Shown here piece by piece: positions 2,246 to 9,224 of a stretch of 11,303 nt of DNA. The notes beneath the pieces are model-generated. The model made no database searches and was not told the DNA's origin. It saw nothing but the letters and a program-made list of their open reading frames with translations. The position numbers and the translations under genes were made by a program. Position 1 is the first letter of the stretch, and each line of letters opens with the position of its first letter. Source of the stretch: an uncultured Oscillospiraceae bacterium (GTDB lineage: Bacteria; Bacillota; Clostridia; Oscillospirales; Oscillospiraceae); assembly GCA_934572365.1 (NCBI GenBank), contig CAKTKX010000027.1, positions 1 through 11,303 of the forward strand, read 5' to 3'.

Positions 2246-2296
2246 CAAGCACATGCAAAAGCACCATGTACTTTTATGTGCGGTCGTAAAACAGTC

Positions 2297-2328
2297 AATG
2301 GAGCGTATCCGTACAGATACGCTCCATT
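2297..2328. terminator. hairpin downstream of birA (likely terminator)
   Basis: AATGGAGCGTATC at 2297-2309 and GATACGCTCCATT at 2316-2328 are perfect 13-bp inverted repeats around a 6-nt loop. The following TTTCTTGTGT is only moderately T-rich. It lies between the convergent birA and transketolase genes and could end transcripts from either side. The same hairpin recurs at 6024-6055 beside the same repeat element, so it is part of a dispersed unit rather than a gene-specific terminator. Confidence 0.6.
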
Positions 2329-2467
2329 TCTTGTGTCAATATACGCCCCCCTTGGCTCTCCCTCTGGGAGAACTGTCACCGAAGGTGACTGAGAGGGTAT
2401 TGCGCCCTAGTTTCCCTCTCCGTCTTCGCTTCGCTCAGCCGCCTCTCCCATAGGGAGAGGCAAGGGG
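2297..2467 (+). repeat. dispersed palindromic repeat unit, copy 1
   Basis: The unit consists of the 13-bp hairpin at 2297-2328 and a 120-bp element at 2348-2467. The element has imperfect terminal inverted repeats (CCCCTTGGCTCTCCC at the left, GGGAGAGGCAAGGGG at the right, one mismatch) and contains small internal palindromes: CTCTCCCTCTGGGAGA, GTCACC-GAA-GGTGAC (2375-2389) and CCTCTCCCATAGGGAGAGG. A closely similar copy in the opposite orientation lies at 5877-6055. There is no coding capacity. It resembles non-autonomous palindromic or MITE-like elements common between genes of gut Clostridia. It fills most of the 301-nt birA-transketolase gap; nothing else is apparent there beyond a weak palindrome near 2255-2280. 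Confidence 0.85.
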
Positions 2468-2546
2468 TACTCATATTAACAGGCACAGCGGGTTATCCTG
2501 CTGTGCCTGTTCGCTGTCTGACCCCATTCCGTACGGGGCGCCTGTT

Positions 2547-4424: not shown

Positions 4425-4479
4425 GCAGACCAGCCTGAAAATATATCCTGTCCCGTCTCTTAAAAATTTTTCGGCCGGG

Positions 4480-4506
4480 TGCAACAAAATGCCCGTCTCA
4501 ATCGTA
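4480..4506 (+). promoter_or_regulatory. ECF-type promoter before the sigma factor gene (candidate)
   Basis: TGCAAC at 4480-4485 followed after 17 nt by CGTA at 4503-4506 resembles promoters of ECF sigma factors such as B. subtilis SigW (TGAAAC-N16/17-CGTA). It lies about 40 nt before the GTG at 4548. Autoregulation is common for ECF sigma genes, so this may be the site the encoded factor itself uses. No convincing sigma-A pair is seen here, although TATATA occurs at 4509-4514. This is inference from motif similarity. Confidence 0.45.
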
Positions 4507-4547
4507 TTGTATATAGGGTGCAATGCGAATTTGGGGGAGGTTGGGCA

Positions 4548-4988
4548 GTGGACGCGCTAAACTTATTTCATCGCTACCGGGATGATGTTTACCGGCTGGC
4601 AGTCAACTATACCAGCAGTCCCCGGGAAGCGGAGGACGTAAGCCGGACGGTATTTCTGAAGCTGGTGGAGCATGGAGAACTGACGCCGGAAACAGAGCGG
4701 GATTTTCTCATGCAGGCAACTGCTGATACGTGCCATGATCTGCTTCGCTCGGGCGGCTGGAAACGCGCCGTGAAGGGCATCTTCCTCACCCCGAAGACGG
4801 GCGGCTCCCGACAGAGCATCCTGCGCCTGCCGCCCAAATACCGGGTGGTTCTGTACCTGCGCTACTACGAGGACTTTACCACCGGAGAAATCGCCCGGCT
4901 TCTGAAAATCCCCCAAGGCATCGCGGCCGCCCGGCTCTCCCGGGGGCGGGGACAGCTGGAAAAGCTGATGAGAAAGGGTGCAGCGTGA
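4548..4988 (+). CDS. ECF-family RNA polymerase sigma factor (short)
   Basis: This 146-residue protein has the two-domain layout of an ECF sigma factor, near the short end of the family. The region 2 equivalent is at residues 6-42, with LFHRYRDDVYRLAVNYTSSP followed by AEDVSRTVFLKLVEH, matching the usual DAEDVxQxVFxKxW pattern. A linker contains a stretch like the xxDLLR helix (58-68). Region 4 is at 94-142, with LPPKYRVVLYLRYYEDFTTGEIA and an HTH ending in ARLSRGRGQLEKLM. The GTG at 4548 is chosen because GGGGGAGG (4532-4539) lies 8 nt upstream; an in-frame GTG at 4479 would place the start in the putative promoter. The stop overlaps the next gene by 4 nt (GTGA). It should bind core polymerase and respond to the membrane protein encoded next. 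Its regulon is unknown. Confidence 0.88.
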   Translation: MDALNLFHRYRDDVYRLAVNYTSSPREAEDVSRTVFLKLVEHGELTPETERDFLMQATADTCHDLLRSGGWKRAVKGIFLTPKTGGSRQSILRLPPKYRVVLYLRYYEDFTTGEIARLLKIPQGIAAARLSRGRGQLEKLMRKGAA

Positions 4989-5851
4989 ATAAACAAGTGA
5001 TCGATGTCTACGATGGGATGGCCATGCCCGACGACTGCGCCCGGCGCATTGAGGGAGAAATGAACCGTGCCATCCGTCAGAAAGGTGAAACCAAATTTAT
5101 GAAGAACGAAAAGAATGAGAAAAAGCAGAGCTGGGGCTTTGCGGTCGTGCTGGTACGTCTGGTGCTGGTGTTGTCCGTGGGAGGGGTGTTTCTCTTCCTG
5201 AACGCCTCCGGATCAAAGGACGCCCCCGCCGCGCCGGTGGGGACTGAGCAGATTGTCCAGCCGGAAATCCAGACGGGACCTGACACAGCAAGTACGGAAG
5301 CGGATTCCTTCACCCTGAGCGAAACCGGCAGGGCTTTTCTGGAAAAAATGTGCTACTTCATGCCGGACTGGGCAGGTGACGATTCCCTGAACGACGAATT
5401 CTGGCGGAACTTCCTGTTCTCCTCCTTCACCTGTCCGGAAATAACGGACAGCGGAGCGGCAATGACCGTCTGCGGCGAACAGGAACTGGTCACCACCTCC
5501 TGGGGACAGGCGGTAAAGGTCAGCCGGGAGGACAGCGTTGTCCCCTACGTTCGCCTTGCCCTTGGCCGGGAAATGCCCTCCTACGCCCCCGCCATCCGGG
5601 ACGTGAGCGCGGGGCAAACCTTGTTCTATCTTGAAGACGGCTATTACTATATCGGCCTTTCCGACTTTGGCGACGTGGGCTACTCCTTCCGCGGCTGCTA
5701 CCCGGATTCCGTCAACGGCGCTACTGTCATTTTCGATGTCTACAGCGGCACCCCGGAGGATACCATCGGCACCGTCTGCTTTACCCTCGTCCCGGCGGAC
5801 AACGAAAACGGCTTTACCATCTCCTCAAAAAGCTCCGATTTCGGCGGATGA
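4985..5851 (+). CDS. single-pass membrane protein, probable anti-sigma factor/sensor for the preceding sigma
   Basis: I do not recognise a named family over the whole length. The 288-residue product has a charged cytoplasmic N-terminus (1-48) with a short predicted helical segment, CARRIEGEMNRAI (18-30), one membrane segment at about 50-73, a Pro/Thr/Glu-rich linker (78-108) and an extracytoplasmic domain (109-288) rich in aromatic and acidic residues. Three cysteines occur near 123-163 and two more at 238 and 265. There is no HxxxCxxC zinc-binding motif of the RsiW/ZAS class. The GTG start overlaps the sigma stop (GTGA, 4985-4988), with AAAGGG at 4973-4978 as ribosome binding site, so the pair is tightly coupled. 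That coupling and the N-in/C-out layout suggest an anti-sigma that senses envelope conditions. The role is inferred from context; secreted lipoprotein-like alternatives cannot be excluded. Confidence 0.75.
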   Translation: MNKQVIDVYDGMAMPDDCARRIEGEMNRAIRQKGETKFMKNEKNEKKQSWGFAVVLVRLVLVLSVGGVFLFLNASGSKDAPAAPVGTEQIVQPEIQTGPDTASTEADSFTLSETGRAFLEKMCYFMPDWAGDDSLNDEFWRNFLFSSFTCPEITDSGAAMTVCGEQELVTTSWGQAVKVSREDSVVPYVRLALGREMPSYAPAIRDVSAGQTLFYLEDGYYYIGLSDFGDVGYSFRGCYPDSVNGATVIFDVYSGTPEDTIGTVCFTLVPADNENGFTISSKSSDFGG

Positions 5852-5876
5852 CCCGCATTTTTGACCATTTATGATG

Positions 5877-6055
5877 CCCCCTAGCCTCTCCCTATGGGAG
5901 AGGTGGCTGAGCGAAGCGAAGACGGAGAGGGTACGCAAGGCTGCAATGCCCCCTCAGTCACCTTCGGCGACAGCTCTCCCAAAGGGAGAGCCAAGGGGGT
6001 CTGCACCCCGTTATAGAACGAGAAATGGAGCGTATCTGTGTCGATATGCTCCATT
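5877..6055 (-). repeat. dispersed palindromic repeat unit, copy 2 (inverted relative to copy 1)
   Basis: The reverse complement of this stretch reads as the same unit as 2297-2467: a hairpin with ATGGAGC arms, then an element starting with CCCCCTTGGCTCTCCC and ending in GGGAGAGGCTAGGGGG. Here the 123-bp element is at 5877-5999 and the hairpin at 6024-6055. By eye most positions agree, with the longest mismatched patch in the middle (around 5937-5948). It occupies most of the 322-nt gap between the ECF operon and the envelope operon; the rest of that gap holds the promoter at 6114-6142. Confidence 0.85.
6024..6055 (+). terminator. hairpin in repeat copy 2 (possible terminator of the ECF operon)
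   Basis: AATGGAGCGTATC at 6024-6036 pairs with GATATGCTCCATT at 6043-6055 across a 6-nt loop, with one G-U pair in the plus-strand RNA. The downstream CACTATTTTAT is only modestly T-rich. The pairing is kept in the plus-strand RNA, fitting termination of the sigma/anti-sigma transcript before the next promoter. Confidence 0.5.
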
Positions 6056-6113
6056 CACTATTTTATGGTCACCCATCAGACCGACAAGGGAGGTTTCTTA
6101 ATCCAACGTTCAA

Positions 6114-6142
6114 TTGACAACCTTCCCATTGCCCTGTATAAT
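6114..6142 (+). promoter_or_regulatory. consensus sigma-A promoter of the envelope operon
   Basis: TTGACA at 6114-6119 and TATAAT at 6137-6142 are both perfect hexamers with the optimal 17-nt spacer. Transcription should start near 6149, about 25 nt before the ATG at 6174. This predicts strong constitutive transcription of the three genes through 8999. Confidence 0.92.
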
Positions 6143-6173: not shown

Positions 6174-6803
6174 ATGAAAGGATCCAAAATTTTTTCCGCC
6201 CTGTTCGGCATTCTGGGCATCCTACTGATGGTAGTGACGGCGGCGGTGAGCATTGCGTCGCGGAACGCCCAGCCGAGAATGTTGGAATCTCCCGAGGCCG
6301 CCTCGGCGCAGGCACAGCGCATGATGGACGCCCTGTGCGCCGGGGACTATGCCACCGCCCAAGGCTGCATTTACGGCCAGCCGGATTTGGGCGCTGGGGA
6401 GCCGGAGGATGCCGTAAGCAAGCTCCTATGGGATGCCTTCACGGACAGCCTTTCCTATGAATTCACCGGACTTTGCCGGGTCACGGATACGGGGTTTGCC
6501 CAGGACGCCTCGGTCACCTATCTGGATGTGTCCGGCGTGACGGAGGCAGTTCCCCAGCGGGCGAAGGCGCTGCTGGATGCCAAAGCCACCGCGGCCGAGG
6601 ACAAAACGGAACTTTACAACGAGGATAACAGCTACCGGGATGAGCTGGTGGATCAGGCGCTGAACGACGCGGTGACCCAGGCGCTGAACGAAGACGCCCA
6701 GGCCGTCACCCGCGATGTGACGCTGGGTCTGATCTATCAGGATGGCGCATGGTGGGTGGTGCCGGATCAGGCGCTGCTGCGCATCATCTCCGGCGTGGCG
6801 TAA
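6174..6803 (+). CDS. membrane-anchored extracytoplasmic protein, unknown function
   Basis: I do not recognise the family. The 209-residue product has a short positive N-terminus (MKGSK), one hydrophobic segment at about 6-28 that looks like an uncleaved signal anchor, and an external domain. There is no lipobox cysteine. The external part starts with a helical segment, AQRMMDALCAGDYATAQGCIYG, and ends with VTLGLIYQDGAWWVVPDQALLRIISG. That combination, a helix with GDY followed by strands and a terminal dGxWwv motif, resembles small NTF2-like or DUF4878-type lipoprotein domains, but this is a fold guess. The ATG at 6174 is preceded by GAGGTG (6163-6168) and sits 32 nt after the -10. It is the first gene of an operon with a phosphodiester glycosidase domain protein and an Lgt-like protein, so a partner or substrate-presenting role at the envelope is plausible. 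Confidence 0.75.
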   Translation: MKGSKIFSALFGILGILLMVVTAAVSIASRNAQPRMLESPEAASAQAQRMMDALCAGDYATAQGCIYGQPDLGAGEPEDAVSKLLWDAFTDSLSYEFTGLCRVTDTGFAQDASVTYLDVSGVTEAVPQRAKALLDAKATAAEDKTELYNEDNSYRDELVDQALNDAVTQALNEDAQAVTRDVTLGLIYQDGAWWVVPDQALLRIISGVA

Positions 6804-6814
6804 GGAGGACGGAC

Positions 6815-8023
6815 ATGGCATATCAACCCAAATTTGCCCGAAAAAAAGACCGGGTCAGTCCGTTTTTCGTCCTGCTGGGGGTCATCGTGGTGCCGATTTC
6901 TCTGGCACTGACGGCCGTTCTGCTGGGAAAGATGGCGCAGTCCCTCAGCCGTCCCAAAGCCACGGCGCAGACGGCACCGGAGAATATGGCAATTATGGAG
7001 CAGTTTGACGGCTTCGTCTCCGCAAAAATGGACGCCGCCCGGGATACCCTCACCGCCGTGCAAACACCGGAGAATGTTCCCGAGACTACCGTTCCCGTAA
7101 GAGAAAAGGTCATCATCGAGATTCCGGACGACGCTCAGGTCGCCCCGGAGCCGAACCCGGAGTGCTACGGTCAGACCGACGACCCGTCCTCTCTGCAATG
7201 GCTCCTGGATGAAGCGGCCTTTCTCTTAGATGGGCAGGAGCTGTATTTCAGCACCGACGCAGAGCTGTTTGAGGGCAGTCTTGTCAACTATTATCTGGAC
7301 GACACCATTTTTGCCATCACCTGGAAGGAGGTCCACGACGGTTCCGTGTATACCTTCTCCGAGGTGAAGGTCAACCATCCGTCCCAGTTCCGGCGGCATC
7401 TGGCCGGCGGCGAATACGGCTCAGCGCCCCAGTTCTACACCTCGGAAATGGCAGAAAGCGTCAACGCGGTGGTGGCGTCCTCCGGCGATTTCTACAATTT
7501 CCGCAACTTTGGCATCATCGTCTATCAAGGGCAGGTGCGCAAGGTGGAAGGCACCTACGCCGAGACCTGCTATATCGACCGGAACGGCGACCTCCACTTC
7601 ACCTACGGCGGTGACATCACGACCACGGCGGCCGCCAAGGAATACGTGGCGGAGAACGACATCTGGTTCAGTCTGGGCTTTGGCCCAGTATTGGTGAACA
7701 ATTATGAAGTGATCGACCACACTTGGTACGGCGTGGGCGAAATCACGGAGGGCTACGCCCGAGCAGCGCTGTGCCAGATGGGCGAGCTGCACTATATCGT
7801 CGCCACGGCGAACACGGAAGGCCCCTGGCAGGACATTCCCACCGTCAAGACCTTTGCCAAAAACATCGCCGCCACCGGCTGCCGCATGGCCTACTGCCTG
7901 GACGGCGGACAGACCGCCGCCATCGTCATGGGCGACCAGCTCATCAACCGCCCGGTCTACGGCCAGCAGCGGAAGATCAGCGACATCATCTACTTCGCCA
8001 CGGCGATGCCGGAAGGAGGCTGA
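6815..8023 (+). CDS. membrane-anchored phosphodiester glycosidase (NAGPA/PF09992) domain protein
   Basis: This 402-residue protein has a basic N-terminus, a membrane segment at about 16-40, a low-complexity Pro/Glu/Val linker (50-115) and a C-terminal domain matching the phosphodiester glycosidase family (NAGPA, the lysosomal uncovering enzyme, and bacterial exopolysaccharide-associated homologues). Supporting motifs are ASSGDFYNFR at 221-230, SLGFGPVLVNN at 286-296, CLDGGQTAAIVMGDQLINRP at 361-380 and RKISDIIYF at 386-394, the usual order in the family. The usual GG-S-S pattern reads DGGQTAA here. By family, it should cleave sugar-1-phosphodiester bonds outside the membrane, for example in wall polymers or glycans, but the substrate is unknown. 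AAGGAGG (6802-6808) lies 6 nt before the ATG at 6815, which is 11 nt after the preceding stop. The next gene starts 4 nt after this one ends. Confidence 0.87.
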   Translation: MAYQPKFARKKDRVSPFFVLLGVIVVPISLALTAVLLGKMAQSLSRPKATAQTAPENMAIMEQFDGFVSAKMDAARDTLTAVQTPENVPETTVPVREKVIIEIPDDAQVAPEPNPECYGQTDDPSSLQWLLDEAAFLLDGQELYFSTDAELFEGSLVNYYLDDTIFAITWKEVHDGSVYTFSEVKVNHPSQFRRHLAGGEYGSAPQFYTSEMAESVNAVVASSGDFYNFRNFGIIVYQGQVRKVEGTYAETCYIDRNGDLHFTYGGDITTTAAAKEYVAENDIWFSLGFGPVLVNNYEVIDHTWYGVGEITEGYARAALCQMGELHYIVATANTEGPWQDIPTVKTFAKNIAATGCRMAYCLDGGQTAAIVMGDQLINRPVYGQQRKISDIIYFATAMPEGG

Positions 8024-8027
8024 CGGT

Positions 8028-8999
8028 ATGGAAAAAATTGCGTTTATTTCCGGAGAAACCGTGTATTACTGGAGTTCCATCGTGCTGACCCTGGCGTCAC
8101 TGACTGCCATCTGCTTTTTCTGGTCGCTGTATCTGGGAAAGGGTGGCAACGCCGTCGCCGCCTTCAGTGTGGTACCCTTGGCCATCGCGCTGTCCCTTCT
8201 GCTCGGGCGGCTGGTTCACTGGTACTGCCGCACCAGCAGCTACGATAGCTTCACCTCCGCCATGAAGCCCTTCTCCCCGGGCGGATATGCCCTGCTGGGC
8301 GTCTTTGCCGGATGCGCACTGGCGGCGGTGATCGTTCGTCTGGTGCATTTTGACCGGAACCTCCCACAGATGCTGGACTGCATGGCTGTAGCCGGGTGCG
8401 CCGGTATCGCCGTGGGGCGGCTTGCCTGTTTCTTCAATTCCGCTGACCGAGGGCAGATCATTGCTTCCACCCAGTCGCTGCCCTGGGTCTATCCCGTGAC
8501 CAACGCCGTCTCCGGCGCTACGGAGTACCGTCTTGCAACCTTTGTTTTGCAGGCCATGGCGGCGCTGGTGCTGTTTTTGATCCTGCTTCTATACTACCTG
8601 CCCAAAAAGCGGAAGGACGGGGACACGGCGCTGATTTTCCTGCTGCTTTACGGCGTGTCCCAGATCGTGCTGGACAGCACCCGGTATGACAAGCTGTTTT
8701 TCCGCAGCAACGGCTTCGTCAGCGTGGTGCAGGTGCTGGGTGCGCTGGGGCTGCTGTTGGTGATCATCGTATTCTCTGTGCGGATGGTGAAAGCCCGGGG
8801 CTTCCGGTTCTGGAATGTGCTGGTGTGGCTGGGGATCGCCGCCTGCATCGGCGGCGCGGGCTTTATGGAATATTACGTCCAGCGCCACGGCGATCTGGCA
8901 GCCTTTTCCTACAGTATTATGAGCGTTTGCCTGCTGGCGGCGGCGGGACTGGTTCTCCTGCTGCACAAGCTGGCGCAGCCCGTCCGGCGCAGACGATAA
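8028..8999 (+). CDS. Lgt-like (prolipoprotein diacylglyceryl transferase family) membrane protein, diverged
   Basis: This 323-residue protein has about seven to eight membrane segments and the motif order of Lgt, which transfers diacylglycerol from phosphatidylglycerol to lipoprotein cysteines: GRLVHWY at 60-66, SPGGYALLG at 83-91, GRLACFFNSADRG at 130-142, YRLATFVLQA at 167-176 and YGVSQIVLDSTR at 208-219. Several Lgt residues differ. The HGG histidine is Pro84. In the GRxxNxxxxExxG signature the Arg (131) and last Gly (142) remain, but the first Asn is Cys134 and the Glu position is Ala139. The late Arg/Glu pair reads Gln212/Asp216. So it may have a changed activity or none; this comparison is from memory of the E. 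coli enzyme. An extra C-terminal pair of membrane segments ends in a basic tail. GGAAGGAGG in the preceding gene provides the ribosome binding site. A strong terminator follows. Confidence 0.72.
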   Translation: MEKIAFISGETVYYWSSIVLTLASLTAICFFWSLYLGKGGNAVAAFSVVPLAIALSLLLGRLVHWYCRTSSYDSFTSAMKPFSPGGYALLGVFAGCALAAVIVRLVHFDRNLPQMLDCMAVAGCAGIAVGRLACFFNSADRGQIIASTQSLPWVYPVTNAVSGATEYRLATFVLQAMAALVLFLILLLYYLPKKRKDGDTALIFLLLYGVSQIVLDSTRYDKLFFRSNGFVSVVQVLGALGLLLVIIVFSVRMVKARGFRFWNVLVWLGIAACIGGAGFMEYYVQRHGDLAAFSYSIMSVCLLAAAGLVLLLHKLAQPVRRRR

Positions 9000-9014: not shown

Positions 9015-9057
9015 AAAACCCTCCGTATGCACGAACTGTCATACGGAGGGTTTTTAT
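9015..9057. terminator. intrinsic terminator after the Lgt-like gene, probably bidirectional
   Basis: AAAACCCTCCGTATG at 9015-9029 and CATACGGAGGGTTTT at 9040-9054 are perfect 15-bp arms around a 10-nt loop, followed by a short T tract (TTTTTAT in total, 9051-9057). The A-rich left edge gives a matching T tract on the minus strand, so it could also stop transcripts coming from the HD-domain gene. Confidence 0.92.
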
Positions 9058-9059
9058 AA

Positions 9060-9220
9060 GGCAACACCGCATAATTTGACAAGAAGACTCAGCCAGGATT
9101 TTTGTCCCAATTCAAAGTTTGAAAAATGGAGGAATACTGTATGTATTTCCCATTTTTCAAACTGAAGAAGTGGGGCAAAAAGGCGGCTGAGGCTCGCAGG
9201 CAGAATTATGCGGTGTTGCC
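9060..9220. mobile_element. MITE-like element forming one long hairpin
   Basis: The ends are perfect 17-bp inverted repeats: GGCAACACCGCATAATT at 9060-9076 and AATTATGCGGTGTTGCC at 9204-9220. Pairing continues inward: CTCAGCC (about 9088-9094) with GGCTGAG (about 9185-9191), TTTTTGTCCCA with TGGGGCAAAAA, and a 14-bp perfect inner stem AGTTTGAAAAATGG / CCATTTTTCAAACT around the centre. The 4-bp ATAA flanks both sides (9056-9059 and 9221-9224), consistent with a target-site duplication. There is no transposase; mobilisation would need a helper elsewhere. It landed right behind the terminator at 9015-9057. Confidence 0.82.
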
Positions 9221-9224
9221 ATAA
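9141..9224 (+). CDS. possible 27-residue cationic small protein inside the MITE-like element
   Basis: An ATG at 9141 is preceded 7 nt upstream by GGAGGA (9128-9133), an ideal ribosome binding site, and the frame runs to a TAA at 9222-9224, just past the element end. The product starts MYFPFFKLKKWGKKAAEARR and is strongly basic with an aromatic N-terminus. Much of it is encoded by the right arm of the hairpin, so composition is constrained by pairing. It may be chance, or a carried micro-ORF; no family is recognised. No promoter is obvious, and the terminator at 9015-9057 would block read-through from upstream. Confidence 0.25.
   Translation: MYFPFFKLKKWGKKAAEARRQNYAVLP

What the first reader, a model, noticed from the sequence alone, without database searches (positions are those of the whole stretch)
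6174..8999. Candidate new envelope system: unknown anchor protein + phosphodiester glycosidase + Lgt-like protein
Three tightly spaced genes share a perfect consensus promoter and one strong terminator. A NAGPA-type glycosidase anchored outside the membrane is paired with a diverged member of a lipid-transferring family and an unknown single-pass protein. Together they could trim or lipidate a surface glycan or wall polymer. I know of no described pathway with this trio.
Basis: partly seen in the sequence, partly recalled or inferred. Interest (0 to 1): 0.72.

Follow-up and report, generated by a model that had tools for sequence, protein, structure and literature searches.

The report
Conserved NTF2–phosphodiester glycosidase–Lgt-like envelope operon
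Three neighbouring genes of a gut bacterium form a conserved, apparently undescribed cell-envelope module in which a rebuilt copy of a lipid-transferring enzyme travels with a sugar-phosphate-cutting enzyme, suggesting an unknown way of fitting lipids to, or trimming, a surface polymer.

Summary
Three close-set genes (6174-6803, 6815-8023, 8028-8999) lie between a 12/12 consensus promoter and a strong terminator. The trio is real beyond this window: among loci found through the Lgt-like gene, a phosphodiester glycosidase (NAGPA) gene lies directly upstream in 33 of 33 where that side is held, and all 9 loci found through NAGPA have the Lgt-like gene directly downstream. In a 200-genome family sample both occur in the same 15 genomes. 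Five ORFs fuse the first protein to NAGPA.

The first protein is a membrane-anchored NTF2-like domain, nearest by model to the N-domain of PBP5fm. The third has the Lgt fold but changed key residues: R143 and R246 equivalents stay, while R239, N146, E151 and Y26 are gone in every readable sequence (42-43). It has a C-terminal extension with an invariant ExxxQR. Of 23 such genomes tested, 20 also hold a canonical Lgt. So it is a repurposed paralogue.

My best reading is an outer-face envelope module that couples phospholipid handling to a glycosyl-phosphate polymer. The exact reaction is inferred, not shown. Novelty: new variant of known parts.

The parts
6114..6142 (+). sigma-70-type promoter TTGACA-17-TATAAT
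   Evidence: 12/12 match; kept 12/12 at the same distance in L001 and L002
6163..6168 (+). ribosome-binding site (GAGGTG) of orfA
   Evidence: read from sequence
6174..6803 (+). orfA: membrane-anchored (helix 3-30) NTF2-like protein, 209 aa, domain predicted outside
6802..6808 (+). ribosome-binding site (AAGGAGG) of NAGPA gene
   Evidence: read from sequence
6815..8023 (+). NAGPA: membrane-anchored phosphodiester glycosidase domain protein, 402 aa
   Evidence: PF09992 59.2 bits over residues 217-394; profile finds NAGPA structures 6pkg, 6pku and DUF2233 structure 3ohg; subfamily motif LDGGQ[TS] in 41 of 43
8013..8019 (+). ribosome-binding site (AAGGAGG) of lgtL
   Evidence: read from sequence
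8028..8999 (+). lgtL: Lgt-fold integral membrane protein with two further C-terminal helices, 323 aa
9015..9055 (+). intrinsic terminator
   Evidence: -24.6 kcal/mol, z -6.68

Best explanation
The three genes encode one functional unit on the outer face of the cytoplasmic membrane of certain Oscillospiraceae. OrfA (one anchor helix plus an NTF2-like domain) is an adaptor or wall-docking subunit of NAGPA. NAGPA acts on a glycosyl-1-phosphate diester of a surface or wall polymer. LgtL is a canonical-Lgt paralogue that keeps part of the phospholipid site (R143, R246, and D in place of E243) but has lost residues needed for lipoprotein transfer. Its outer-face pocket is rebuilt with R141, R168 and an ExxxQR motif at the end of an added helix. 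The most likely mechanism is that LgtL takes a lipid group from a phospholipid and passes it to a non-protein acceptor on the polymer that NAGPA exposes or releases, giving (or exchanging) a lipid anchor. Shown: operon layout, linkage, folds by model, residue changes. Inferred: physical complex, membrane side, phospholipid as donor, glycan as acceptor, order of steps.
For: NAGPA directly upstream of lgtL in 33 of 33 testable loci found through lgtL, and lgtL directly downstream in 9 of 9 loci found through NAGPA; gap -1 to 19 nt in 41 of the 42, 50 nt in L081. lgtL and high-scoring NAGPA in the same 15 of 200 family genomes; orfA (170 bits or more) in those 15 plus G158, whose contig ends inside NAGPA. 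OrfA-NAGPA fusions in 5 ORFs, two of them the copies next to lgtL (L059, L089) and three second copies. Canonical Lgt (100 bits or more) also present in 20 of 23 lgtL genomes tested, one as a fragment, so LgtL is free to do something else. R143 equivalent 42/43, R246 43/43, D at the E243 place 43/43; R141, R168, E281, Q285 and R286 constant. Wall and glycan neighbours: a class A beta-lactamase-like serine hydrolase domain upstream on the same strand in 15 of 43 loci, fused to OrfA in 8 and to NAGPA in 1; MBOAT and DHHW relatives in 4 of 43. OrfA's best structural matches are N-domains of PBP5fm.
Against: No activity data. R239, which Lgt mutagenesis finds indispensable (PMC4728403, PMC13251419, passages), is Q, E, D or T in 43 of 43, so diacylglyceryl transfer may be impossible. 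The NAGPA loop also departs from the GGG or GGSS form of PDB members and of ordinary NAGPA neighbours. No glycan-synthesis family recurs at all loci. The beta-lactamase-like domain was not found in the window or upstream in 28 of 43 loci, some of which are cut short by contig ends. orfA was not found upstream in L073, L081 and L088, nor in L003, where the contig starts inside NAGPA. The gene set is patchy: 31 of 400 genomes of the family.
Confidence: 0.42

Rival explanations
1. LgtL is a non-catalytic lipid-binding scaffold: an Lgt pseudoenzyme that seats NAGPA and OrfA at the membrane and perhaps senses phospholipid, while NAGPA alone does the chemistry.
For: R239 and N146 are lost in 43 of 43 sequences, Y26 in 42 of 42 readable, and the H103 place is His or aromatic in only 2 of 42 (W in L071, F in L085); NAGPA linkage held in 42 of 42.
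Against: 23 positions, many charged (R61, D117, R131, R141, R168, D216, R219, D221, E281, R286), are conserved in at least 97% of 43 sequences whose mean pairwise difference is about 60%; that is more than a scaffold usually needs (my judgement).
Confidence: 0.26
2. LgtL is a specialised second prolipoprotein diacylglyceryl transferase for unusual lipoboxes.
For: Same fold as Lgt; second Lgt homologues and homologues lacking R143/R239 are noted in other phyla (PMC13251419, passages).
Against: R239, N146 and Y26 of Lgt are missing; neither OrfA nor NAGPA of the window has a cysteine in its anchor stretch (sequence); scores far below the Lgt equivalog cut-off.
Confidence: 0.1
3. LgtL breaks or remodels phospholipid (for example releases a head group) and NAGPA trims the matching glycolipid, a turnover pathway rather than an anchoring pathway.
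For: R143-type site kept; loss of other residues could fit hydrolysis; diacylglycerol in the E. coli Lgt crystal was put down to slow hydrolysis of PG (PMC4728403, passages).
Against: I saw no family that handles the products recurring in the neighbourhood.
Confidence: 0.14
4. The genes only share a transcript; there is no joint function.
For: Compact genomes can keep operons for other reasons; distance correlations between the genes are moderate (Spearman 0.69, 0.53, 0.48).
Against: Co-occurrence in the 200-genome sample is all-or-none for lgtL and high-scoring NAGPA, the order is kept while flanks change, and OrfA-NAGPA fusions exist.
Confidence: 0.06

Closest known systems
Lgt, prolipoprotein diacylglyceryl transferase (PF01790, TIGR00544; E. 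coli 5azb)
   Different: Lacks R239, N146, E151 and Y26, and nearly always the H103/aromatic site; two further C-terminal helices with invariant ExxxQR; coexists with a canonical Lgt in 20 of 23 genomes tested.
NAGPA / DUF2233 phosphodiester glycosidases (PF09992; 6pkg, 3ohg)
   Same: Domain match.
   Different: Own subfamily with LDGGQ[TS] in 41 of 43, where PDB members have DGGG and two ordinary neighbours DGGSS; fixed neighbour lgtL.
NTF2-like N-terminal domain of class B PBPs (PBP5fm, PBP2a)
   Different: No transpeptidase in the window; several relatives carry a beta-lactamase-like hydrolase domain instead.
Lgt homologues without R143/R239 in Deinococci, Myxococcales and others (PMC13251419, passages)
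   Same: Lgt homologues that break the Lgt motif.
   Different: Those lack both arginines and are from other phyla; LgtL keeps R143 in 42 of 43 and is tied to NAGPA. I did not compare the sequences.

Membership tests
Lgt (PF01790) | Pfam gathering score and Lgt fold | tested here: met
Lgt, functional prolipoprotein diacylglyceryl transferase (TIGR00544) | Equivalog cut-off 118.9 bits | tested here: not met
   65.1 bits
Lgt, functional prolipoprotein diacylglyceryl transferase | Essential residues Y26, R143, N146, G154, R239 (list from PMC13251419, passages; H103 is replaced in other phyla) | tested here: not met
   LgtL: R143 42/43, G154 30/43, but Y26 0/42 readable, N146 0/43, R239 0/43. Canonical Lgts of the same family: R143, N146, G154 and R239 17/17, Y26 in the 9 of 17 that extend that far
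Lgt, functional prolipoprotein diacylglyceryl transferase | Transfers diacylglyceryl from phosphatidylglycerol to lipobox Cys | not testable with these tools
   needs assay
NAGPA (PF09992) | Pfam gathering score | tested here: met
   59.2 bits against 25
NAGPA (PF09992) | Hydrolysis of a glycosyl-1-phosphodiester | not testable with these tools
   needs assay; the paper on the bacterial structure is not held
NTF2-like / PBP5fm-type N-domain | NTF2-like fold | tested here: met
NTF2-like / PBP5fm-type N-domain | Match to a Pfam family of that fold | tested here: not met
   77 members scanned at E 0.01: 7 families, each matched by one member, none recognised as NTF2-like

The most novel reading that the evidence does not exclude
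LgtL is the first Lgt-fold enzyme whose acceptor is not a protein: together with NAGPA it moves a diacylglyceryl (or other phospholipid-derived) group onto a glycosyl-phosphate wall polymer, swapping a peptidoglycan-type phosphodiester anchor for a lipid anchor. This would be a new route to a lipoglycan in monoderm gut bacteria.
Probability: 0.2. Interest if true: 0.88.

Novelty: new variant of a known kind. Interest (0 to 1): 0.62.

Why it matters
Lgt is commonly treated as a one-reaction family and is proposed as a drug target (PMC13251419, abstract passage); a relative of this protein is named prolipoprotein diacylglyceryl transferase by its source (P0044). A subfamily that lost reaction residues, yet is strongly conserved and locked to a sugar-phosphate enzyme, would show that the fold has been reused. 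How Oscillospiraceae build and turn over their surface polymers is, to my knowledge, little known, and the trio gives a defined, testable entry.

Tried and rejected
Tried without result: Pfam, NCBIfam (below cut-offs) and PDB sequence searches with single OrfA; Rfam on the window (none); Foldseek on OrfA (no match at E 0.001 or better), then the second look by VIA-align. Rejected: that the trio is a chance grouping; that LgtL replaces a missing Lgt (canonical copy in 20 of 23 tested; none found in G006, G076, G092, whose completeness is not told; the genomes new were not tested); that loss of His103 by itself is telling, because the canonical Lgts of these bacteria have Tyr (16 of 17) or Phe there and PMC13251419 says the same of Firmicutes. 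Loss of E151 also weighs little: that paper reports E151A, R73A, D129A and E243A as functional, whereas PMC4728403 reports E243 changes as non-complementing. The ECF sigma factor and its neighbour at 4479-5851 were considered as part of the system and dropped: among L001-L009 only L001 shows them (some of these loci are cut short). The match of OrfA to Rv0361_Cterm (E 0.00078, 19.7 bits, below its cut-off 37) was not followed. In one search four of 22 'canonical' rows looked like wrong-strand translations; one search dropped these, L020 and rows without GRWGNF, leaving 17. In one search six seeds were named but only four were found and used.

Full report
What is there. The three ORFs are as described: orfA 6174-6803, NAGPA 6815-8023, lgtL 8028-8999, spaced 11 and 4 bases apart. 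A 12/12 promoter precedes them and a strong terminator follows. The promoter is kept exactly, with the same distance to the ATG, in two relatives (L001, L002); in L004, L005, L007, L008 and L009 the best site in the 200 bases upstream is 8 to 10 of 12. dN/dS values of 0.02 to 0.29 among close relatives fit purifying selection on all three genes.

Is the trio a unit? Nine relatives were found from the NAGPA protein, so for those NAGPA is present by construction; the test there is that lgtL follows directly, in 9 of 9. Another 34 loci were found through lgtL in genome samples and fetched. L091 and L092 are probably two ends of one gene in genome G899; in L091 the upstream side is missing. Among the other 33, NAGPA lies next to lgtL upstream in 33. 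Over all 42 the gap is -1 to 19 nt in 41 and 50 nt in L081. An orfA homologue lies upstream in 38 of 42 (partial in L006, L074 and L086; behind a second NAGPA in L070); it is not seen in L003 (contig start), L073, L081 and L088. In the 200-genome family sample, lgtL scored 172 bits or more in 15 genomes and other matches 49 or less. NAGPA of this subfamily (360 bits or more) occurred in the same 15; 17 further genomes had NAGPA matches of 43 to 145 bits, which I read as ordinary NAGPA, apart from G158. orfA (170 bits or more) occurred in the same 15 plus G158, where orfA and a NAGPA fragment lie together and the contig ends at base 6671, inside NAGPA; 6 further genomes had weak orfA matches of 37 bits or less. 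A 400-genome sample, which includes those 15, gave 31 genomes with lgtL. Outside the family it was not seen: the order sample held it in 3 of 295, all three also in the family sample (a fourth genome, G755, at 114.9 bits was left undecided); the class sample in 1 of 391 and the phylum sample in 1 of 279, each time the query genome itself. In the class sample 66 other genomes matched at up to 125.6 bits, which I read as canonical Lgt without checking each. The named loci L007 and L009 are Candidatus Faecousia, family Oscillospiraceae. In the protein database LgtL has 3076 matches at E 0.001 among 7999 scored, of which I saw the best 120, and OrfA 110.

Fusions and further partners. Five ORFs join an OrfA domain to NAGPA: L059 and L089 next to lgtL, and second copies in L068, L076 and L091. 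A class A beta-lactamase-like domain (PF13354) is found in 16 of 43 loci, on the same strand upstream in 15; it is fused to OrfA in eight and to NAGPA in one. The four seed sequences show SxxK, SxN and KxG motifs (my reading; the motif names are recalled). The LgtL frame of L067 runs on into leucine-rich repeats. Relatives of the MBOAT and DHHW proteins of L059 lie in L059, L065, L067 and L082. Transketolase genes follow lgtL in L003-L009; in the window they lie upstream on the other strand. No beta-lactamase-like domain was found in the window.

NAGPA. The domain is clear and its profile reaches NAGPA structures. The subfamily has LDGGQT or LDGGQS in 41 of 43 linked copies, two not fitting the pattern. 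Which residues are catalytic I could not check in the primary paper.

How it may work. The anchors and positive charges suggest that all three work on the outer face (inference). NAGPA releases phosphodiester-linked sugars (PMC12419801, passages). The linkage of wall teichoic acid to peptidoglycan is such a diester, GlcNAc-1-P-6-MurNAc (recalled, no call). The PBP-type NTF2 domain and the beta-lactamase-like partner of relatives also point to the wall. I therefore favour a module in which NAGPA acts on a glycosyl-phosphate wall polymer and LgtL supplies or removes a lipid. The neighbour evidence is circumstantial, and the LgtL reaction could be absent (scaffold) or hydrolytic.

Literature. No held paper has the terms phosphodiester glycosidase, prolipoprotein diacylglyceryl transferase and Lgt together. 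Searches on NAGPA terms, phosphodiester glycosidase with teichoic acid, the enzyme's long name with teichoic acid, Lgt homologue or paralogue terms and Faecousia with cell envelope gave no title, abstract start or passage that I saw which describes this trio. Only listed papers were seen, and only open-licence papers are held. Nearest ideas in print, seen as passages only: NAGPA fused with TelC in large surface proteins (PMC12419801) and a hypothetical Lgt-like step in myxobacterial protein sorting (PMC11980579).

Verdict.

Noticed in passing
window 2276-2475 and 5870-6076: A roughly 200-base element is present twice in inverted orientation (three arms, 80-92% alike); the second copy ends 37 bases before the trio's -35 box. 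It looks like a MITE-type element.
   Followed up: partly
window 9057-9223: A second inverted-repeat element (20-base arms, 95% complementary) lies directly after the terminator.
   Followed up: no
window 4479-5851: ECF sigma factor gene overlapping a gene for a protein of unknown family with one likely membrane helix, perhaps an anti-sigma pair; relatives of both lie upstream of the trio in L001.
   Followed up: no
L020 (genome of L007): A further Lgt-family protein, 154 bits, with Cys-rich GRIGCFCAGCCYG in place of GRxGNF.
   Followed up: no
L067 4448-7051 (-), and the frame of L082: LgtL frames of about 870 codons; in L067 the extension holds leucine-rich repeats.
   Followed up: no
L004, L068, L070, L076, L081, L083, L085, L088, L091: Second copies of the NAGPA subfamily beside the trio, some fused to an OrfA domain.
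   Followed up: partly
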